DNA of 32,413 bases from a virus: the IMG/VR virus record IMGVR_UViG_3300044766_000011, positions 1 through 32,413 of that record; one strand, given 5' to 3'. Below are positions 1 to 32,413 of the stretch, one piece after another. Under the pieces are notes generated by a model. It was given only the letters and a program-made list of their open reading frames with translations. It ran no database searches and was not told the DNA's origin. Positions within the stretch are counted from its first letter, which is position 1. The number at the start of each line of letters is the position of its first letter. The position numbers and the translations under genes are program-made.

Positions 1-555
1 TTTCCCCCAGGGGTTTTTCACGATTTCACGGATTCGGTCCGCCTGCCACCTGCGCTCTTCCGCCCTCGCCTCACTCGCCGCATCCGACGCACTCGCCGCC
101 CAATACGCCGCACTCTCCGCCCGCGCCGCCCAATACGCCGCATTCGCCGCCCGCGCCGCGCAATACGCCGCACTCTCCGCACTCTCCGACGCCCAATACG
201 CCGCACTCGCCGCCCAATACGCCGCACTCGCCTCACTCGCCGCATTCGCCGCCGCACTCGCCGCACTCGCCGACGCACTCTCCGCACTCTCTCGAGTTCG
301 GTCCTCCCCACTCAGCCACCGGTCTGCCCACGAGTTCCACTCGGGATCGCGGCAAACGTGTTTTACGCATACAATCGCGATCTCTACCGCCTGCTCTTGC
401 GTGAGATTTCCCGTTTTGCATAGGAGCCAAATCATCCAATCCGCACGCTCGCAGTTATCGTACGCGTTACGGATGGATTTCTGTGTTTTTGCCCACGCCA
501 ACCCGTCCGCGCATGGGCGCAACGATTCCAGGATTTTTAGATCAGTTTTGTTCAT
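1..555 (-). CDS. Ala/Tyr/Trp-repeat phage protein, copy A (3' end beyond window)
   Basis: The frame is open from the ATG at 555 to position 1 (185 codons, no stop inside the window), so the gene ends just outside. Residues 1-85 form a non-repetitive domain rich in Trp and Cys (GLAWAKTQ, NCERADWMIW, CVKHVCRDPEWN). The next ~80 residues are a low-complexity helix-like run of ASAAS, AAYW and AAR units. A conserved tail resembling QADRIREIVKNPWGK closes it. This layout matches a widespread phage/prophage class with a GL.WAK...DWL.W head and an Ala-rich repeat (possibly called Imm-5-like putative immunity protein), whose function is unknown. A second copy sits at the right window edge and a decayed copy just upstream. 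The ribosome site is GGGGGAAAAG, which lies in the 3' end of the decayed copy. Family link is from memory; the repeat structure is seen directly. Confidence 0.8.
   Translation of the reverse strand, partial: MNKTDLKILESLRPCADGLAWAKTQKSIRNAYDNCERADWMIWLLCKTGNLTQEQAVEIAIVCVKHVCRDPEWNSWADRWLSGEDRTRESAESASASAASAAANAASEASAAYWAASAAYWASESAESAAYCAARAANAAYWAARAESAAYWAASASDAASEARAEERRWQADRIREIVKNPWGK
61..290 (-). repeat. Imperfect tandem repeats inside copy A
   Basis: On the plus strand the stretch is built almost wholly from CGCCGCACT, CGCCGCCCAATA and similar 9-12 base units in irregular order. In the coding frame they give Ala-Ala-Ser and Ala-Ala-Tyr-Trp units. Unit length is a multiple of three, so gain or loss of units would keep the frame open. 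This also creates long spurious Arg-rich open frames on both strands. Confidence 0.85.
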
Positions 556-671
556 CTTTTCCCCCACGGGTTTGAAACTATTTCACGGATGTGCCCCGCC
601 TGCCACTTGCGCTCCGACGCACTCGCCGTCGACCTCTCAGCCCAATACGCCGCACTCGCCTCACTCCAGGA
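552..671 (-). pseudogene. Decayed 3' remnant of the repeat-protein gene
   Basis: Reading from 671 to the TGA at 554-552 gives a frame with SEASAAYWAE, then a tail of the form ERKWQAGHIREIV-NPWGKR, the same C-terminus as the two large copies. Immediately upstream in this frame is a TAA (674-672) and there is no plausible start, so the N-terminal domain is missing. The TGA overlaps the ATG of copy A as ATGA. The remnant also overlaps the last bases of the gene ending at 661. It reads as a truncated duplicate left after recombination, still supplying the ribosome site of copy A. Confidence 0.7.
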
Positions 672-1050: not shown

Positions 1051-1431
1051 CTAGACGAATATCCAGCTTTTGTGCCGGAATACCGCCACCTTCTTGATCC
1101 CCCCATCGGGGAGGACCTCCTCTACGCTCTCCCGCGTGGAGTGAGCGTATGCGACGCTCACGCGCGACCGCAGGGCCAACTGGCCCAGAATGAACTGAAA
1201 CGCCGGGGAACCCCCCGGCTGATACAAACAAACAGAATCGTATCCTCCCTCAACCTCCTGGCCCGAGGCATAGGCCAACAGCACCCTCCCCAGGTGCTCC
1301 AACTCCCCCACCTCGGATGGGCACTGGTTTAGTGCCCCCTGCAGGTCTTCAGGGAGGTACATGAACCCTCCCTCAACCCCCTGATCGGGGGTATTCTTGT
1401 GGGACGACGCCCACAAGTTTAATTGTTTCAT
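1051..1431 (-). CDS. Hypothetical protein, 126 aa
   Basis: Family not recognised. I place the start at the ATG at 1431 because GAGGAGGAAAAG precedes it directly; the frame extends further upstream only through the leader hairpin. The sequence begins MKQLNLWASS, has a PEDLQGALNQCPSEVGELEHLG helix near residues 25-50 and a C-terminal VAYAHSTRESVEEVLPDGGIKKVAVF strand-like part. It looks like a small soluble accessory protein. It is preceded by one of two near-identical 39-base leader elements, so its translation or mRNA processing may share control with the gene at 1743-1516. Confidence 0.65.
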   Translation of the reverse strand: MKQLNLWASSHKNTPDQGVEGGFMYLPEDLQGALNQCPSEVGELEHLGRVLLAYASGQEVEGGYDSVCLYQPGGSPAFQFILGQLALRSRVSVAYAHSTRESVEEVLPDGGIKKVAVFRHKSWIFV

Positions 1432-1448
1432 CTTTTCCTCCTCTAATT

Positions 1449-1503
1449 TTGATCCCGGTCGATCCGGGTTAATCACTCCCGCACCCCTCCGGTTGGGGAG
1501 GGG
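1449..1503 (-). promoter_or_regulatory. Leader element copy 1: two stem-loops before a start codon
   Basis: The 39 bases at 1449-1487 match 1761-1799 at 37 positions. On the minus strand the order is a 7-bp GC hairpin (1503-1484), a conserved GTGCGGGAGTGATTAA spacer, a CCCGG/CCGGG hairpin, then ATCAAA and the ribosome site of the gene starting at 1431. The upstream hairpin differs in sequence from copy 2 but keeps seven base pairs. Role is unknown. Confidence 0.6.
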
Positions 1504-2196: not shown

Positions 2197-2343
2197 TTAG
2201 GCTCCCAGGACGCGATTCTTTCGGGGGTGAGCCTTAACCCAATTTTTGTTCCCGCATGATCTAGAACAAAACTTGGACTTACTCGCCCATGTCTTATATT
2301 TCCGACCGCACTCCGAGCATTTTTTATTTATCGGTTTTAACAT
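2197..2343 (-). CDS. 48-aa zinc-finger peptide
   Basis: The ATG at 2343 follows GGGGGAAAAAA and overlaps the end of the methyltransferase-like gene by 20 bases in another frame. The product has CSECGRKY at residues 9-16 and FCSRSC at 25-30, giving a CxxC...CxxxC metal site like those of HNH or Zn-ribbon peptides, followed by a basic tail (VKAHPRKNRV). That suggests a small nucleic-acid-binding protein. There is no HNH catalytic core in it. It is the last gene of the 4207-2197 cassette and is probably translated from the same message. The coordinates fit a TAA at 2199-2197. Confidence 0.65.
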   Translation of the reverse strand: MLKPINKKCSECGRKYKTWASKSKFCSRSCGNKNWVKAHPRKNRVLGA

Positions 2344-2905
2344 TTTTTTCCCCCGCTTGAAATCCAAAATACAATGTTTTTTGGAAGTTTATAAAAAATA
2401 CTTCTTTGAGACCAAAAGAAGACAAAACCCGCAAAATTTGTTTTTCTCGGTTTTTTGAAAACAATGTGGGGCATTTCTTAATCATGCGTTCGGTGTATCC
2501 AATTTTCTTTAGTGCCCCAAATGGGAGTTGACCGAATCCAGACGTTCCAGCAGTAAAAAAAACAAGACCATGAAAACCAGAAGACAAAATAATTTCAAGC
2601 TGAGCGAAAGGAAATCCGTAGCTATCCAGATCCACAATATCTACGTTTTCCAGATTCATTCCTAATAGGACTTTTAGATTATCTAATTTAATTGCTCCTT
2701 TTTTCTTATCGGCTTTTTCGATTGAAACAACATTAAGCTTTTTATCAGGTAATTGTTTTTTTAACTTATCGTAGATCGTGCCATATCCAGAAAACGCATC
2801 CAAAACGTTGAGTTCTTTTTTTCCAAGTCCATCTATCAAAAACTTACGAATCAAAACTTTTTTATTCAGATTTTTGTTATCCGTTTTAATTGCCTGTTGT
2901 TTCAA
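2324..2905 (-). CDS. Rossmann-fold SAM methyltransferase-like protein (Trm1-like motifs)
   Basis: Using the TTG at 2905 (after GGGGGTCGAAA) gives 193 aa and only a 20-base overlap with the ParB gene; a longer start at 2956 is possible. LNVLDAFSGYGTIYDKL near residue 35 is the glycine-rich SAM-binding motif I, VVSIEKADKKKG the acidic loop after strand 2, and DIVDLDSYGFPFAQLE near residue 95 corresponds to motif IV. The D-YG-P form is like the DPYG/DPFG-P motif of Trm1-type guanine-N2 methyltransferases rather than the NPPY/DPPY of DNA adenine or cytosine-N4 enzymes, with Ser in place of the first Pro. The middle TAGTSGFGQLPFGALKK is not typical. Base composition is clearly AT-rich compared with the virion genes. 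Substrate is unknown; nucleic acid is likely. Confidence 0.65.
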   Translation of the reverse strand: MKQQAIKTDNKNLNKKVLIRKFLIDGLGKKELNVLDAFSGYGTIYDKLKKQLPDKKLNVVSIEKADKKKGAIKLDNLKVLLGMNLENVDIVDLDSYGFPFAQLEIILSSGFHGLVFFTAGTSGFGQLPFGALKKIGYTERMIKKCPTLFSKNREKQILRVLSSFGLKEVFFINFQKTLYFGFQAGEKNVKTDK

Positions 2906-3431
2906 TTTCGACCCCCTCAATTCCAGATAAAGAGTCAATGGATTTTTGAATCTCAAATAGTTTATCTTTGGGAGCAGATATTAAAAAGTGAATCATATCA
3001 ACGGGAACCAATTCAACTTTATTCGGTGTATCGTTTTCAGTTTCTGCAAGAGAAACCAAATCTGAAAATTCAAAACCTGAAAGGTCAAAAGTGTTTGTGA
3101 AGTCAAAATCTAAAAATTCAGTTAATTCGGACATGTCAAACTCACCGCCAATCTTGTTCAACGCGACATTCATCGTTTTTATTTCTCTATCGCTGTATCC
3201 CTCAATTCTCAGGATGGGAACGGTTTTTAATCCAAGTTCCTTCACCGCCCTCAATCTCTGATTCCCCCCAACCACTCGATTATTTTGATCAACAGTTAGG
3301 GGTGCCACAACTCCAAACTCATGTATATTTTTTTTAAGTTTTTCAAAAACAGAACTAGACATTTTCCTGGGGTTTCCAGGAAACGGGATTAGATCTGAAA
3401 CATTTGCGATCTCAGCAGTTCTTTTTTTCAT
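2886..3431 (-). CDS. ParB/Srx-fold (ParB N-terminal domain) protein
   Basis: The 181-aa protein has the ParB N-domain pattern: a PFPGNPRKM box near residues 16-24, a LKKNIHEFGVVAPLTVD helix-strand unit and VVGGNQRLRAVKELG near residues 53-67 (the GxxRxxA-like box). The C-terminal ~80 residues are acidic and lack the ParB DNA-binding HTH, so plasmid-type partitioning is unlikely. Members of this fold act as CTP/ATP hydrolases, nucleases or small-molecule kinases, and in phages they often sit beside methyltransferases or base-modification enzymes. Its ATG overlaps the radical SAM stop as ATGA, so the two are translationally coupled. A role in nucleic-acid or nucleotide modification is inferred from context. 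Confidence 0.75.
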   Translation of the reverse strand: MKKRTAEIANVSDLIPFPGNPRKMSSSVFEKLKKNIHEFGVVAPLTVDQNNRVVGGNQRLRAVKELGLKTVPILRIEGYSDREIKTMNVALNKIGGEFDMSELTEFLDFDFTNTFDLSGFEFSDLVSLAETENDTPNKVELVPVDMIHFLISAPKDKLFEIQKSIDSLSGIEGVEIETTGN

Positions 3432-4207
3432 GGATTGCCCTTTATCGCGTGAGCATCGGCGTTTCTTTCGTCTCCAACAAAAACAAATCCTTCGGGTGCG
3501 TGTTTTGCCAATTCGTCTTTGATATAAAACCTTTTTCCGAGTTTACGAAGCAATTTCACAGAATCCAAAAGAAACTTTTGCCAATCGACATCTATTTTTT
3601 GGTAGTTCATCTTTCCGACTTTGTAACCATCTACAAACTTGTTGGATTCTTTAATCAGCTCCAGAGTTTCTTCGGATTTTATCACCGGTTCCAACGAAGC
3701 CCAGGTTTCAATTCCTGATTCATGAGCTTTTTTTAACGCGTTTAGTCTTTCTTCGGGAGAAGCCGCACCTGGTTCCCACTCTATCCAGGTTTTTTTTTCC
3801 ATGCATGACAATGTAGCGCCGAGTTTAACTCTCTTTCCCATTGACTTTAATATGTCCATATCAGCCAGGGAACGGACCCCCCCTTTACTCAATATTGCGG
3901 TTGGTGTTCCACACTTCGCGAAAATTTCCAGAACTCGACGTGTTAATCTGTGCTTGGGTTCTTCCTCAGAGTATGGATCACACGTGAACGATAGCAAAAC
4001 TTGTTCTTTTGCTTTTAACGCCGATTTTTCAAGCCCTTTCAAAACATCAAATCTTGGTATCACATTTTTTTGATCGTAACCGGATTTAAACTTTTTCATC
4101 ATCGGTACGACATAACAATAGGTGCATCCATGAGTGCATCCGGCGTAATGGTTCAGGGCTTTTGGCGAGTATTCTCTTGCTCTTCCTGCGGGCGTGTAAA
4201 TATTCAT
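3428..4207 (-). CDS. Radical SAM protein, spore photoproduct lyase-like
   Basis: The start at 4207 follows AAAGAGGTGAAT at good spacing (a GTG two codons earlier is less well placed). In the 259-aa product C24, C28 and C31 form the CxxxCxxC [4Fe-4S] cluster motif of radical SAM enzymes within NHYAGCTHGCTYCYV. That opening, the LLSFTCDPYSEEE strand and the WASLEPVIKSEET stretch resemble the SPL-like branch known from spore photoproduct lyase and related proteins. SPL acts on a thymine adduct in DNA, so a DNA base is a reasonable but unproven substrate. It is the first gene of an AT-rich cassette with its own promoter and is coupled to the ParB-fold gene. Confidence 0.8.
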   Translation of the reverse strand: MNIYTPAGRAREYSPKALNHYAGCTHGCTYCYVVPMMKKFKSGYDQKNVIPRFDVLKGLEKSALKAKEQVLLSFTCDPYSEEEPKHRLTRRVLEIFAKCGTPTAILSKGGVRSLADMDILKSMGKRVKLGATLSCMEKKTWIEWEPGAASPEERLNALKKAHESGIETWASLEPVIKSEETLELIKESNKFVDGYKVGKMNYQKIDVDWQKFLLDSVKLLRKLGKRFYIKDELAKHAPEGFVFVGDERNADAHAIKGNP

Positions 4208-4228: not shown

Positions 4229-4256
4229 ATGATAGTCAATTATGGTCGATTGTCAA
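4229..4256 (-). promoter_or_regulatory. Consensus sigma70 promoter of the radical SAM cassette
   Basis: The minus strand has TTGACA (4256-4251), 16 bases, then TATCAT (4234-4229), about 20 bases before the start codon at 4207. TTGACA is a perfect -35 box. It is the strongest promoter-like sequence I found in the window and suggests that the cassette can be expressed apart from the late operon. Confidence 0.65.
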
Positions 4257-4636: not shown

Positions 4637-4665
4637 AAAAAAAGCGGGAGGCCTGAACCTCCCGC
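4637..4665 (-). terminator. Strong rho-independent terminator
   Basis: A perfect 8-bp stem GCGGGAGG/CCTCCCGC with a 6-base loop is followed on the minus strand by seven T residues. It begins 14 bases after the stop of the membrane protein gene at 4680 and probably marks the end of the late virion/lysis operon. Confidence 0.9.
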
Positions 4666-4679
4666 CGAACGAACAACTT

Positions 4680-6376: not shown

Positions 6377-6451
6377 TGGTTGCGAGGGCAGGAATTGAAC
6401 CCGCGATTTTCTGAGTATGAGTCAGACGACCCACCACTGGTCCACCTCGCG
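6377..6451 (-). tRNA. tRNA with CAU anticodon, C1-A72 mismatch, CCA encoded
   Basis: The 75-base minus-strand sequence folds into a full cloverleaf. The acceptor is CGCGAGG/CCTCGCA with six pairs and a C1-A72 mismatch. The D stem is GACC/GGTC with loop AGTGGTG. The anticodon stem TCTGA/TCAGA carries loop CTCATAC, anticodon CAT. The variable loop has five bases and the T arm is GCGGG/CCTGC with loop TTCAATT. Discriminator A and CCA follow in the DNA. C1-A72 is the hallmark that marks bacterial initiator tRNA for formylation, but the three G-C pairs of the initiator anticodon stem are absent. It could be initiator-like, elongator Met, or Ile with a lysidine-modified C34. Confidence 0.9.
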
Positions 6452-7698: not shown

Positions 7699-8484
7699 TT
7701 ATTTCCACCAGACAGGGAAGTTGTTTTTCGGTTTGAACACGGTCGGAGCCGTGTAACCTGATTTTGCGGTCAGGATAATGTTGTCAACCCAAAATGTTAA
7801 TGTCACGGGTGTAGTTATGTTTGGGCTTTCGGTCTGCCATTGAATGGATGTGATTTGGGACAGCGCACGGGACAGACTCATGGTTGTGCCATCGGATAGT
7901 GTCAACGGACATGAGTTAGTACCCCACGACTGGCAGGACAGTGTGGAATAATCCAGCCCAATTGTTTGCCACGCCGACGGCGTATTTACTTGAAACGTAT
8001 AACCATACTGATTATCGTTTCCATTTCCGCCTATGGGCCCACCGTTCCAGGTCACCGGGCCATACTGAATATTCGGGTTGTTGAAATTTATTCGCAATGT
8101 GCAAGCCGACGATGTCATGACAGAAAATGTAACCGACTGCATCCACGACATGTCGCAATACGTTGGGTTAATCTCAGTACCTAATCCGAACCCTGCATAA
8201 GTCGTGGGACCGTTGTAATTCCACCATCCCGTGCATTTTGCAGAGTATGCCGACGTGGTGTATTGATCCGTTGAAACAATGTACGAGTTATTGTTAACGG
8301 CAGAGTATGCAGGCGTTACCTGCACACTGTTAACGGATGTCCAACAAAACGTAAACCAAAGACGCCCGGTAGCATTGATATTTTGGCCGCCCGCGAAGCC
8401 GTCCAAAATAAAACTGGACGACTGAGCTGAACAGGTCAGGGTCAGGGTCAGGGTCAGGGTCAGGGCCAACAAAAAACGTTTCAT
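7699..8484 (-). CDS. Secreted jelly-roll / carbohydrate-binding-like protein
   Basis: The 261-aa protein opens with Lys-Arg and a hydrophobic core formed by Leu-Thr repeats, ending in TCSAQS, a typical Sec signal peptide with a cleavage site near residue 20. The mature part is beta-rich, begins SFILDGFAGG and ends with QITSIQWQTESP and FWVDNIIL, a pattern seen in jelly-roll carbohydrate-binding modules of the CBM11/CIA30 type. Six or more Cys residues could form disulfides. That fits an exported protein rather than a virion protein made in the cytoplasm. It belongs to a block of three genes with N-terminal signal or anchor segments after the tail fibre. Function unproven. Confidence 0.65.
   Translation of the reverse strand: MKRFLLALTLTLTLTLTCSAQSSSFILDGFAGGQNINATGRLWFTFCWTSVNSVQVTPAYSAVNNNSYIVSTDQYTTSAYSAKCTGWWNYNGPTTYAGFGLGTEINPTYCDMSWMQSVTFSVMTSSACTLRINFNNPNIQYGPVTWNGGPIGGNGNDNQYGYTFQVNTPSAWQTIGLDYSTLSCQSWGTNSCPLTLSDGTTMSLSRALSQITSIQWQTESPNITTPVTLTFWVDNIILTAKSGYTAPTVFKPKNNFPVWWK
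8434..8465 (-). repeat. Hexanucleotide repeat GGTCAG x5 in a signal peptide
   Basis: Five exact copies of a 6-base unit plus two bases run from 8434 to 8465. On the coding strand they give (Leu-Thr)5 in the hydrophobic core of the signal peptide at 8484. Slippage by one unit changes the core by two residues and keeps frame. Confidence 0.9.
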
Positions 8485-27183: not shown

Positions 27184-28830
27184 TTATTTTTTCCCGCCAA
27201 GTTTTTCGTAGAGCCACATGACGAAAGGCCAACGCACCTCACCGTAAGACGATTTAGAAGCCTCTTTCGCCTTCTCCCACTTCGTCCCGTTCTGAATGTT
27301 TCCAAGAGCCTCCAAAAATTCTATGTGACTTATTTTCTTAGGTGCGTCCGAGGCCTCAAACTCCGGCGCGTAATTCATAACTTCGACCTCGTTCTTGACT
27401 TCTTTTTCTTCCTTGGGTTCGGGAGCTGTGGGAGGGTTCAACTTGGTTTCTTCGGTTCCAGATTCTTCGCCTTCGCCCGTAATCTTTTCATCTTTGGAGA
27501 TAGTATCGGGTATTTCGTCCGGGTCAATATGAACCCCAAAAATATTGGCTTTGTTCACGGCTTCACAGTAGTGATTTTTACCGATGAGCCCTTCGACACG
27601 CGCTTGGTGGATTCGATTGTAAAGCAGGGTCTTGACGTTTTCCTCGCCCTCGGCGCTCAACACCCGGAGAGGTTCAAACTCTATTTCCAGGTCGTCGGGG
27701 ATCATCCCAAAAAGTTCCTGGCATCTCACCTCGAGAACTTTCAAGATTAGAGGAGTTACGGGTTCTCGCACCTCGCCCTCTACCATTCCGTTGTAAATTT
27801 CAATGTCGTCCTCGCCGGATGAAAATCCAGCGGCGGAAACACCAAATACCCGTGTCAACGGCATACGAAGGTCGGAAGCGATCTGCATACGATTCCCGGT
27901 TTGGACCTCAGCCAGCCCAGCGAACGTAAGTTGTTTGTGATCGAAATCATCTTCGGAATCCATGACCAAAGCGTTCTGGTAACTTTTCATCAAATTGGTG
28001 ATAGTGACGCGCTTTTGAGCGGACGAAAGACCATCAGGCAAAGACAAAGTTTTGGCCAGTCCCTTGAGCTTGAAAATGTCCAGCTTGAATTCATCGAGGA
28101 CTTCGTACGAAAGATTCTTGGCCTTGTTGTATTGGTTCAATCCGCTGACTAATTTTTCAACGACAGACATGCCCCACCCGCGAAGACGAGGGCGAACGAA
28201 AGAAGGCGGTTCAATTCCGTTTATGCGTAAAACTCTCGACCTGTGCAACCTATCGACGTTGTAGTATCGATAATACTCAATGCTGTTTTCAACGGCGGTC
28301 GGGTCTGGGTTGTCGGAAATGGACGTGGGGTCAAATACAAGCTCCCACATGTCCACGGACCGTAATTCAATATTGCTGTCCGGCGTCAATGCTTCGAAGT
28401 CCAAAGGAGTGGCCGGGTCTTGGTCGGAAAGAATAATGATAGCCCCTCCGCCAAAAAGACGAGACCACTTTGTAGCCGAACCTATTTTCCTAAAGTCTCC
28501 CTTTCTTTTGCAATGCTTTCCCAGTTGGATGATTTGATCCTCAGACAGCTGTGAAGAAGAAATCTTTACGCCCCCGCGCAAAGCGTCGTCAACGGGAACG
28601 TCTACCACTGTTTGGACTAGGCCTATTTCTGCGTAGGCTTCGGAGATCAATTGTCGGTTGTTGGAAACGAGGTAATAACGTAGATTCTTGAAAAGTGCGT
28701 CGGGATTGGATGCGGATTCAACGCTGGGATTTATTCCAAAAATGTTTGGATTGGCTCCCCCGGTAAATTGGCTCATGTCGTTGAATATCTGAGTTTGGAC
28801 TTTAGGAGCTTTACCTATTTTTTTTCTCAT
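27184..28830 (-). CDS. Portal protein, DUF1073-like
   Basis: In the 548-aa product ISEAYAEIGLVQTVVDVPVDDALRGG near residue 60, WSRLFGGGAIIILSDQ near 125, PRLRGWGMSVVEKL near 220, and DLRMPLTRVFGVSAAGFSSGEDDIEIYN near 330 are landmarks of the DUF1073 portal family. The C-terminal ~110 residues are acidic low-complexity (EESGTEETKLNPP) followed by a small helical part ending KLGGKK. It forms the dodecameric DNA gate. The ATG overlaps the terminase stop. Confidence 0.85.
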   Translation of the reverse strand: MRKKIGKAPKVQTQIFNDMSQFTGGANPNIFGINPSVESASNPDALFKNLRYYLVSNNRQLISEAYAEIGLVQTVVDVPVDDALRGGVKISSSQLSEDQIIQLGKHCKRKGDFRKIGSATKWSRLFGGGAIIILSDQDPATPLDFEALTPDSNIELRSVDMWELVFDPTSISDNPDPTAVENSIEYYRYYNVDRLHRSRVLRINGIEPPSFVRPRLRGWGMSVVEKLVSGLNQYNKAKNLSYEVLDEFKLDIFKLKGLAKTLSLPDGLSSAQKRVTITNLMKSYQNALVMDSEDDFDHKQLTFAGLAEVQTGNRMQIASDLRMPLTRVFGVSAAGFSSGEDDIEIYNGMVEGEVREPVTPLILKVLEVRCQELFGMIPDDLEIEFEPLRVLSAEGEENVKTLLYNRIHQARVEGLIGKNHYCEAVNKANIFGVHIDPDEIPDTISKDEKITGEGEESGTEETKLNPPTAPEPKEEKEVKNEVEVMNYAPEFEASDAPKKISHIEFLEALGNIQNGTKWEKAKEASKSSYGEVRWPFVMWLYEKLGGKK

Positions 28831-30212
28831 GGACGCATCCCTGCGAATTTGTTGAAAACTTCGAACATGTTTACGTCATTGATGGATTCGTAAAACGCCC
28901 CGGACAGCGCATCCACTATGTCGTCGTGCCCACTGTTTTTAGGCGGCGGGAACGAATCAAGCTCATCGAAAAATTCTTTGTTCCATGGGGCGCGAAGCAC
29001 TCGAATGTTTCCGGCCTCGGCCTGGGCTGAAACGGGTTTGGCTCTTGTGGCTTTGTCGGCACCTGTCTTGTAAACCGAGACGTCGTATCCCGGCAACATG
29101 CGGACAAATGTTTCAGCTTCGCCAACCCCAGCACTTCCAGGGTCTTGCTGGGCGACGATCTTCGTAGACTGTCCATCGTGAGAGGCTACGGCACGAATTA
29201 GGTTTTCAACCTGCCCCGGTGTATCCCTCAGCGATCTCAAGTCACCGATAACATACGTCCCATTTGCATATCTGTAAAGTTTTATGCCTCTCGTCCAATC
29301 GGGGTCATTATTCGACGGGTTGGGTTTTGTGGCCGCCCGGTCCCACGAACGGACAACCTCGGACCATCCGCCGGGTATCGCATCCACGAGGGGGAACCAT
29401 TCGCGCCGGAAGAAATTGCCCGCAGTCGCACGTATATTCCAGTTTCCGCCCAGAAGCCTTTCACGGTCAACTTTCTGCAAAACCTCAATTCTCGACTTAT
29501 AGGTCGGATCTGATTTAATCAGGATTTTATTGTCCGACAGTTTCGCGGGGATGAACGTGAAAGACATGGGGGTGAATTCTTTCCCGTATTTTTCGGTTAA
29601 TTCCTTTCGGCTGTTCCCCCACTCAATTTTGTCCTCAATTCGTAGGAAATAACGGATTTTCCCAGAACGTTCAGCGATTGGGTATCCATCGGGACCAATC
29701 CACCAATCAATCAGGCCGCGCACAAATGAATCAGGGTCGGGGTTGCATGTGGCTCTCAACCTTCCGGGTATTCCGGTCATGGACCTCATCCGGGAAAACA
29801 TGTACCAGAATTGCGGCTCCAAAAAGTGCGTCAATTCGTCAAACCCGATGTAAGGGACCTGAGCCCCTTGGTAGATATAACAATCCTTTTCATATTCCAG
29901 GTGATTAAATTTCATCGACATGCCGGAAGGGAAAACGCAATCAAGAACATGTTCGCGAAGACTTCCATTGCACATCGAATAAAGGTTTCGGGCCGTGTCC
30001 CACAATCCGCCGGGGTTTGTTATCTGCGTGGTATTTCTGCGGAAAATAAGGCCCCGGAATCCTCCGCACTCAATATCCCTCAGCGGATCAAGCAAAAGAG
30101 AATATGTTTTGCCTCCCCCTGCGGCACCCCCATAAATTGCAACGGTGGCGGGAGTAGACAGGAACTGGGTTTGTGGTCCAGGCTGAGGTCCAATGTAAAT
30201 CTCTTCGGTCAT
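28827..30212 (-). CDS. terL: Terminase large subunit
   Basis: The 461-aa protein has a Walker A GGAAGGGKT at residues 28-36, a FRRNTTQI coupling segment, Walker B YIGFDEL near 122-128 with the catalytic Glu following Asp, then LRATCNPDP (motif III). The nuclease domain shows VRSWDRAAT near 278, VAQQDPGS, and SGHDDIVDALSGAF near 435, giving the acidic RNase H-like residues. It packages DNA into the prohead. It is coupled to the small subunit by an ATGA overlap. Confidence 0.95.
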   Translation of the reverse strand: MTEEIYIGPQPGPQTQFLSTPATVAIYGGAAGGGKTYSLLLDPLRDIECGGFRGLIFRRNTTQITNPGGLWDTARNLYSMCNGSLREHVLDCVFPSGMSMKFNHLEYEKDCYIYQGAQVPYIGFDELTHFLEPQFWYMFSRMRSMTGIPGRLRATCNPDPDSFVRGLIDWWIGPDGYPIAERSGKIRYFLRIEDKIEWGNSRKELTEKYGKEFTPMSFTFIPAKLSDNKILIKSDPTYKSRIEVLQKVDRERLLGGNWNIRATAGNFFRREWFPLVDAIPGGWSEVVRSWDRAATKPNPSNNDPDWTRGIKLYRYANGTYVIGDLRSLRDTPGQVENLIRAVASHDGQSTKIVAQQDPGSAGVGEAETFVRMLPGYDVSVYKTGADKATRAKPVSAQAEAGNIRVLRAPWNKEFFDELDSFPPPKNSGHDDIVDALSGAFYESINDVNMFEVFNKFAGMRP

Positions 30213-31933: not shown

Positions 31934-32413
31934 TTTTTCCCCCAGGGGTTTTTCACGATTTCTCGGATTTGGTCGGCCTGCCACTTGCGCTCCGCCGCAC
32001 TCACCGCACTCGCCGCCCAATACGCCGCACTCGCCGCCCTCACCGCCGCACTCACCGCACTCGCCTCACTCGCCGACGCCCAATACGCCGCCCTCACCGC
32101 CGCCCTCACCGCCGCCCAATACGCCGACCAATACGCCGCACTCGCCGCACTCGCCTCACTCGACGCATCCGACGCACTCGCCGCACTCGCCGCACTCTCT
32201 GCCGTCCGGTCTTCTCCACTCAGCCATTTGTCCGCCCACTCGTTCCACTCGGGATCGCGGCAAACGTGTTTTACGCACGTTATCGCAATCTCTACCGCCT
32301 GCTCTTGCGTGAGATTTTCCGTGTGATTGAGCAACCACAGCATCCAGTCCGACCGCTCGCAGTTATCGTACACGCCGCACAGTGAGTCCTGCGTTTTGGC
32401 CCACGCCAACCCG
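31930..32413 (-). CDS. Ala/Tyr/Trp-repeat phage protein, copy B (5' end beyond window)
   Basis: The open frame runs off the right edge; by comparison with copy A about 18 N-terminal residues are missing. The visible part begins GLAWAKTQDSLCGVYDNCERSDWMLWLLN, keeps CVKHVCRDPEWNEWADKWLSGEDR, then enters the AS/AAYW/AVRAA repeats and ends ERKWQADQIREIVKNPWGKK. Identity to copy A is high in the head and tail; repeat number and order differ. The stop overlaps the MazG-like start. Function unknown. Confidence 0.8.
   Translation of the reverse strand, partial: GLAWAKTQDSLCGVYDNCERSDWMLWLLNHTENLTQEQAVEIAITCVKHVCRDPEWNEWADKWLSGEDRTAESAASAASASDASSEASAASAAYWSAYWAAVRAAVRAAYWASASEASAVSAAVRAASAAYWAASAVSAAERKWQADQIREIVKNPWGKK
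31985..32205 (-). repeat. Imperfect tandem repeats inside copy B
   Basis: The same CGCCGCACTCGCC and CCAATACGCCG type units as at 61-290, here in different order and with CTCACCGC variants. The irregular order compared with copy A points to repeated slippage or unequal exchange in either gene. Confidence 0.85.

What the first reader, a model, noticed from the sequence alone, without database searches (positions are those of the whole stretch)
2197..4207. AT-rich radical SAM / ParB-fold / methyltransferase-like / zinc-finger cassette: candidate nucleic-acid modification system
Four overlapping genes form one unit: an SPL-like radical SAM enzyme with CxxxCxxC, a ParB/Srx-domain protein without its usual DNA-binding part, a Rossmann methyltransferase with a Trm1-like D-YG-P box, and a Zn peptide. 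Radical SAM and ParB/Srx-fold enzymes are known to occur in phage base-hypermodification clusters. The set has its own promoter and a base composition unlike the virion genes. It could modify phage DNA or repair/alter RNA to evade host defence. I know of no described system with exactly this set.
Basis: partly seen in the sequence, partly recalled or inferred. Interest (0 to 1): 0.75.

Follow-up and report, generated by a model that had tools for sequence, protein, structure and literature searches.

The report
Phage ParB–methyltransferase–radical-SAM gene cassette
Many uncultured phages, this one included, carry a linked trio of genes beside their DNA-packaging genes (a ParB-like protein, a new family of methyltransferase and a radical-SAM enzyme) that most likely puts an unknown chemical mark on nucleic acid, probably the phage's own DNA.

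Summary
A compact, AT-rich, minus-strand unit encodes a radical SAM enzyme (rSAM), a ParB_N protein, a class-I methyltransferase (MT) and a small zinc finger. The first three form a real, recurrent system; the zinc finger was found only in this phage. MT was used as an unbiased anchor in IMG/VR. After thinning to 52 lineages, 51 have ParB next to MT, 43 have this rSAM nearby, and 6 have the related DUF5131 rSAM instead. Parts are exchanged: on the MT tree the rSAM type switches about 15 times, and MT is sometimes replaced by an N6/N4 DNA methylase fused to ParB. The cassette usually sits within 2 kb of the terminase, of four large-subunit types. MT is a mostly viral family, closest by sequence and fold to tRNA methylase Trm1 but not a member. 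The nearest known system is the uncharacterised TcmP–DUF5131 pair (PADLOC PDC-M41/M30), of which this is not a member. Best reading: a modular two-SAM-enzyme nucleic-acid modification system, most likely acting on phage DNA. Substrate and product are inferred, not shown. I found no paper describing it.

The parts
3428..4207 (-). Radical SAM enzyme, 259 aa from ATG 4207 (GTG 4213 also possible); CxxxCxxC plus an SxEP motif; between the PA0069 family and DUF5131 families
   Evidence: PF04055 38.8 bits; NF033668 85.9 bits, far below its cut-off of 360; 45% identical to Dulem virus 36; profile comparison with DUF5131 prob 97.9, E 4e-13, SxEP in 151/152 relatives
2886..3431 (-). ParB_N/sulfiredoxin-fold protein, 181 aa, no HTH_ParB match; conserved C-terminal segment that usually ends in Asn
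   Evidence: PF02195 36.8 bits; AF2 model matches pNOB8 ParB-N and ParB CTPases; nearest relatives in isolated phages are mostly N-terminal halves of DNA modification methylases; family alignment
2324..2905 (-). Class-I SAM methyltransferase (MT) of a new phage family; SAM loop VLDAFSGYG and motif DLDSYGFP; likely start TTG 2905 after GAGGGGG
   Evidence: Family HMM; AF2 pLDDT 90.2; Foldseek top hit Trm1 3axs E 4.4e-6; profile hit to Trm1 2dul E 2e-4
2197..2343 (-). Small four-cysteine (HNH-like) zinc peptide, from ATG 2343; same transcription unit but not conserved, so probably not part of the system
   Evidence: PHROG 1271 E 3.6e-6; found only in the window among the loci searched
4229..4256 (-). 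Sigma-70-like promoter TTGACA-16-TATCAT about 20 nt upstream of the rSAM start
   Evidence: 11 of 12 consensus matches, but site number in the region not above shuffles
4643..4666 (-). Terminator-like hairpin with T run after the preceding gene; separates the cassette from it
   Evidence: 10-bp stem, TTTTTT tail

Best explanation
A modular phage nucleic-acid modification cassette with two SAM-dependent enzymes and a ParB-fold partner. ParB supplies DNA and nucleotide binding, and perhaps nicking or targeting. MT transfers a methyl group, probably to an exocyclic amino group judging from its D-x-[YF]-G motif IV. The rSAM, of an SxEP clade shared with DUF5131, carries out a radical reaction on the same nucleic acid, either elaborating the methylated base or modifying a second position. 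The target is most likely the phage's own DNA around the time of packaging. Shown here: gene linkage, predicted folds, conserved motifs, recurrent exchange of parts, position beside the terminase. Inferred: substrate DNA, N-methylation, order of steps, the radical product, and the benefit (escape from nucleases, or marking DNA for packaging).
For: MT-anchored scan: 78/80 loci have ParB next to MT; the same rSAM is near in 67, further away in 4, replaced by DUF5131 in 6; at 70% redundancy 51/52 have ParB, 43 rSAM, 6 DUF5131. rSAM-anchored: 54/80 have MT and 58/80 ParB. DUF5131-anchored viral loci: 20 of 79 have MT (15 with ParB too) and 10 have a ParB-N6/N4 methylase fusion. Seven rSAM loci have a ParB-N6_N4_Mtase protein instead of MT, and L060 and L078 fuse ParB to MT: same slot, DNA methylase. 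rSAM type switches about 15 times on the MT tree, 8-9 forced by well-supported branches. The nearest isolated-phage relatives of this ParB are mostly N-termini of DNA modification methylases (PADLOC MTase_II). Terminase within 2 kb of rSAM in 57/74 loci, four large-subunit types. ParB and MT frames overlap in 130/139 pairs.
Against: MT's closest relative of known function is a tRNA methylase. No nucleoside has been measured. MT and rSAM distances correlate only weakly (r 0.14, within the shuffled maximum), so the enzymes need not act in sequence. Fifteen of 80 rSAM-anchored loci have neither partner by HMM (some are cut by contig ends) and 43 of 79 DUF5131-anchored loci have none of the tested partners nearby, so the rSAM may also work alone.
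Confidence: 0.52

Rival explanations
1. An RNA (tRNA) modification system: the Trm1-like MT methylates guanine in host or phage tRNA and the rSAM adds a further group; ParB is regulatory.
For: Trm1 is the best sequence hit (2dul E 2e-4) and best fold hit (3axs); 17/38 members weakly match Pfam TRM; tRNA-modifying rSAMs are common (general knowledge); the window carries a tRNA-Met.
Against: MT is replaced by ParB-fused N6/N4 DNA methylases in the same slot; ParB is a DNA-associated fold and next to MT in 51/52 lineages; position beside terminase; MT is about 190 aa, half the length of TRM.
Confidence: 0.2
2. A repair or proof-reading device: the rSAM reverses a base lesion (photolyase-like), with MT/ParB marking or nicking DNA before packaging.
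For: The rSAM shows remote similarity to a photolyase-named PHROG and to SPL; a ParB-methylase fusion protein is reported to nick DNA (review PMC5512222); packaging-gene position.
Against: SPL model score far below cut-off (14.2 against 437); a methyltransferase is hard to explain in direct repair.
Confidence: 0.12
3. A phage-borne defence or exclusion module related in function to the TcmP-DUF5131 candidate defence pair (PADLOC PDC-M41/M30), acting against competing phages or plasmids.
For: DUF5131, which swaps with the rSAM here, is PDC-M30B/M41B, and TcmP is PDC-M41A/M30A; own promoter-like site and low GC resemble an accessory (moron) gene block.
Against: MT shows no detectable homology to TcmP (hhalign prob 1.4); conserved place beside terminase genes is unusual for a mobile defence islet; PDC systems are themselves untested candidates in that database.
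Confidence: 0.11
4. The genes are independent accessory genes that merely collect near the terminase, a place where ParB/methylase genes are common.
For: ParB-methylase genes are common in phages; many DUF5131 genes have no tested partner.
Against: Near-obligate ParB-MT pairing (51/52), ParB-MT fusions, overlapping frames (130/139) and 49/52 lineages with one of two related rSAMs are not expected of chance neighbours.
Confidence: 0.05

Closest known systems
TcmP-DUF5131 pair (three-Cys-motif partner TIGR04474 + PF07505; PADLOC PDC-M41/PDC-M30)
   Same: An adjacent rSAM of the SxEP clade plus a class-I methyltransferase-like protein with a D-x-[YF]-G box; DUF5131 itself replaces the rSAM in some cassettes
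   Different: MT is not detectably homologous to TcmP; ParB and the terminase neighbourhood are not part of the bacterial pair as seen here
Phage ParB-N6/N4 DNA methylase fusions (e.g. 'DNA modification methylase' of Streptococcus phages; Bce_0392 discussed in PMC5512222)
   Same: Related ParB domain; found in the same slot next to rSAM or DUF5131
   Different: Methylase domain from another branch, no rSAM required; here MT is a separate gene in most cases
Trm1 tRNA (guanine26-N2) methyltransferase, PF02005
   Same: Closest fold and sequence; shared IDLDxYG / IDxDPFG motif IV
   Different: MT lacks the second half of Trm1, scores below the family, lies beside terminase and ParB
PA0069/Rv2578c radical SAM families (NF033668, NF038135)
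   Same: Best named matches of the rSAM
   Different: About a quarter of the required score, shorter protein, SxEP motif shared with DUF5131
Phage thymidine hypermodification clusters with radical SAM enzymes (general knowledge)
   Same: rSAM in a phage nucleic-acid modification context
   Different: No link to those pathways was found here; the partners in this cassette are a methyltransferase and ParB

Membership tests
Radical SAM superfamily (PF04055) | Profile score above cut-off and CxxxCxxC | tested here: met
   38.8 bits against 29.5; the three Cys at least 99% conserved in 152 rows
PA0069 family (NF033668) | Score of at least 360 bits | tested here: not met
   85.9 bits
Spore photoproduct lyase family (TIGR03886) | Score of at least 437 bits | tested here: not met
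   14.2 bits
DUF5131 / Gp37-Gp68 rSAM (PF07505) | Score of at least 28.9 bits | tested here: not met
   P0004 19.9 bits, although profile-profile comparison shows homology, prob 97.9
TcmP-DUF5131 system (PDC-M41/M30) | TcmP-family methyltransferase-like partner | tested here: not met
   No NCBIfam or PADLOC TcmP hit for MT; hhalign prob 1.4
ParB/sulfiredoxin fold (PF02195) | ParB_N domain with pocket residues (N20, G56, R59) | tested here: met
   36.8 bits; conserved columns; AF2/Foldseek
Partition ParB | HTH_ParB DNA-binding domain | tested here: not met
   No HTH_ParB match in P0003; length 181 aa
ParB domains as nucleases or CTPases | Catalytic activity | not testable with these tools
   Needs biochemistry
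Class-I SAM methyltransferase | Rossmann fold with SAM loop GxG | tested here: met
   AF2 pLDDT 90.2, 72 PDB matches at E <= 0.001, those listed nearly all SAM methyltransferases
Trm1 (PF02005) | Score over 27 bits and full-length two-domain protein | tested here: not met
   Window MT has no TRM match; best member E 6.8e-6; about 190 aa against 376 model positions
Trm1 (PF02005) | N2-guanine methylation of tRNA position 26 | not testable with these tools
   Needs enzyme assay
Thymidine hypermodification cluster | Pathway genes such as the 5-hmdU DNA kinase in the same genome | not tested
   No dedicated search; none met among the genes examined, but the record is a 32-kb fragment rich in virion genes

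The most novel reading that the evidence does not exclude
A previously unrecognised class of phage DNA hypermodification in which an exocyclic amino-methyl group, or a neighbouring position, placed by a ParB-guided methyltransferase is converted by an SxEP-clade radical SAM enzyme into a new base (for instance an elaborated N-methyl purine). The same chemistry would be used, with exchangeable parts, by many phages and by the bacterial TcmP-DUF5131 candidate defence pair.
Probability: 0.3. Interest if true: 0.9.

Novelty: new variant of a known kind. Interest (0 to 1): 0.68.

Why it matters
It joins three gene families of unknown or loosely known role (PA0069-like rSAM, DUF5131, ParB–methylase) and one new methyltransferase family into one testable system. 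DUF5131–TcmP occurs in many bacteria (27 of 150 sampled genomes of one family) and is listed as a candidate anti-phage system, yet I found no paper testing its chemistry. A phage version with a fixed set of parts beside the terminase gives a handle on what these enzymes modify, and may reveal a new DNA base and a new way for phages to escape nucleases or mark their DNA.

Tried and rejected
Single-sequence scans of viral contigs with rSAM or MT found nothing; a two-sequence MT alignment also failed; the rSAM alignment and later the MT alignment A7 worked. TcmP identity of MT was considered and rejected. SPL and PA0069 membership rejected. An RNA element in the cassette: none. MT in plasmids: none; MT in isolated-phage records: only Dulem virus 36, itself from a faecal sample. 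Zinc peptide as a system part: rejected, no counterparts. A mirror-tree-type distance test gave MT-ParB r 0.34 and ParB-rSAM 0.21 (both above all shuffles) but MT-rSAM 0.14 (not above the shuffled maximum), which fits frequent rSAM exchange but does not prove co-evolution.

Full report
WHAT IS THERE. The window is a whole IMG/VR virus record of 32,413 bases. On the minus strand, 4207 to 2197, lie four overlapping frames: rSAM (3428-4207), ParB_N (2886-3431), MT (2324-2905) and a 48-residue zinc peptide (2197-2343). GC of the three main genes is 37.9%; no 2-kb window across 4700-32413 is below 44.3%. A sigma-70-like site (11/12) lies just before the rSAM start and a strong terminator-like hairpin separates the block from the preceding gene, although the number of promoter-like matches in the region is not above shuffles.

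FAMILY CALLS. The rSAM passes the radical SAM profile, but scores only a quarter of the PA0069 cut-off and fails SPL and DUF5131 cut-offs. Across 152 relatives, C26, C30 and C33 are the only conserved cysteines, so no auxiliary cluster is indicated. Profile-profile comparison puts it next to DUF5131 (prob 97.9, E 4e-13), and both carry SxEP (151/152 and 117/118). ParB passes PF02195 without a partition HTH; its family has a conserved C-terminal segment that usually ends in Asn, for which no counterpart was found in the PDB. Its nearest relatives in isolated phages are mostly the N-terminal halves of DNA modification methylases. MT alone matches nothing, but with its relatives it is a clear class-I methyltransferase: profile hit to Trm1 2dul, weak TRM matches in 17/38 members, AlphaFold model pLDDT 90.2 with Trm1 3axs as top Foldseek hit, E 4.4e-6, TMq 0.58, followed by generic methyltransferases.

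THE TRIO IS CONSERVED. Dulem virus 36 carries ParB-MT-rSAM side by side in another order (27% identity in MT, 45% in rSAM, 32% in ParB). An rSAM-anchored scan of IMG/VR gave 80 loci: 54 with MT, 58 with ParB, 47 with both. The reverse, MT-anchored scan, which does not presuppose the rSAM, gave 80 loci: 78 with ParB directly beside MT, 67 with the rSAM near, 4 with it farther off, and 6 of the remaining 9 with DUF5131 beside MT. Thinned to 70% identity, 51 of 52 have ParB, 43 the rSAM, 6 DUF5131 and 3 neither. ParB and MT open frames overlap in 130 of 139 neighbouring pairs and are fused in L060 and L078. In 85k bacterial and archaeal species representatives the MT pattern found only four relatives, three of them in metagenome bins, so the family looks mostly viral; that scan used one short peptide pattern and is not exhaustive.

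PARTS ARE EXCHANGED. Seven rSAM loci have, in place of MT, a ParB fused to an N6_N4_Mtase DNA methylase. DUF5131-anchored viral loci show the same two options: 20 of 79 with MT (15 with ParB), 10 with ParB–N6/N4 methylase, 4 with TcmP, 43 with none of these nearby. On the MT tree the rSAM type changes about 15 times; starred branches alone force 8-9 changes (quick tree, many weak forks). This is the strongest evidence that the two rSAM families do the same job for MT, and that MT does a job that DNA methylases can also do.

POSITION. In 57 of 74 rSAM loci the terminase large subunit lies within 2 kb, usually downstream; four large-subunit types occur (Terminase_3, gpA, TerL_ATPase/nuclease, Terminase_6). 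The cassette is thus a unit that moves among phage backbones but keeps its place by the packaging genes. In the window the terminase is at the other end (28827-30212). If the genome is circular or permuted, the cassette would again precede it, but the two record ends carry only a 77%-identical paralogous gene, so this is not shown.

HOW IT MOST LIKELY WORKS. Established or predicted: two SAM-using enzymes plus a ParB-fold protein. Inferred: ParB binds nucleotide and DNA; MT methylates an exocyclic amine (motif IV D-x-[YF]-G as in Trm1 and TcmP, and substitution by amino-methyltransferases of the N6/N4 class); the rSAM then performs a radical step on the same nucleic acid; the target is probably phage DNA near packaging. 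A ParB domain fused to an adenine methylase has been reported to nick DNA non-specifically (review PMC5512222), so a nicking or targeting role for ParB is possible. I put 0.52 on DNA modification, 0.20 on RNA, and the rest on repair, defence or unrelated genes.

WHAT IS KNOWN. The nearest described arrangement is TcmP–DUF5131, common in bacteria (27 of 150 sampled genomes over the TcmP cut-off; neighbouring genes in many of the loci read) and listed in PADLOC as candidates PDC-M41 and PDC-M30. The papers found hold these names once or so each, and I did not find one on their chemistry. MT is not detectably TcmP. Text searches for ParB with radical SAM in phage modification returned nothing on this system; the library holds only open-access papers, so absence there is weak evidence. 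I rate it a new variant of a known, still uncharacterised kind.

LIMITS. Loci were called by translated open frames, not curated genes; contig ends truncate some; rSAM- and DUF5131-anchored counts are biased towards rSAM presence, so the MT-anchored counts should be preferred. 'None nearby' means within 2.5 kb and for the tested profiles only. No chemistry was measured.

Noticed in passing
window 1-560 and 31936-32413: Both record ends carry diverged copies (77% identical) of a gene with in-frame tandem repeats encoding Ala/Ser/Tyr-Trp-rich repeats; the assembly probably broke inside a repeat gene family.
   Followed up: partly
window 1429-1487 and 1741-1799: A 59-base direct repeat (90% identical) precedes two consecutive small genes and holds a Shine-Dalgarno-like stretch and an imperfect inverted repeat (CCCGGTCGATCCGGG in one copy): a duplicated leader or regulatory element.
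   Followed up: no
window 6377-6451, minus strand: A tRNA-Met (CAT) gene sits between the lysis-type genes.
   Followed up: no
window 8434-8465: Five perfect copies of the hexamer GGTCAG in a predicted signal peptide (LTLTLTLT) of a phage protein; a possible slippage site.
   Followed up: no
window 2886-2930 and family alignment A4: The ParB family keeps a C-terminal segment, mostly ending in Asn at the very C-terminus, with no matching solved structure found; function unknown.
   Followed up: partly
L214 and similar DUF5131 loci: A cytosine-5 methylase-like gene lies near DUF5131 in four viral loci, hinting that DUF5131 rSAMs pair with further methylase classes.
   Followed up: no
L056 6751-7845, L067 4551-5729, L070 2824-4030, L082 6757-8185: In some phages the rSAM and the ParB-methylase genes face each other (convergent) instead of forming one operon.
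   Followed up: partly
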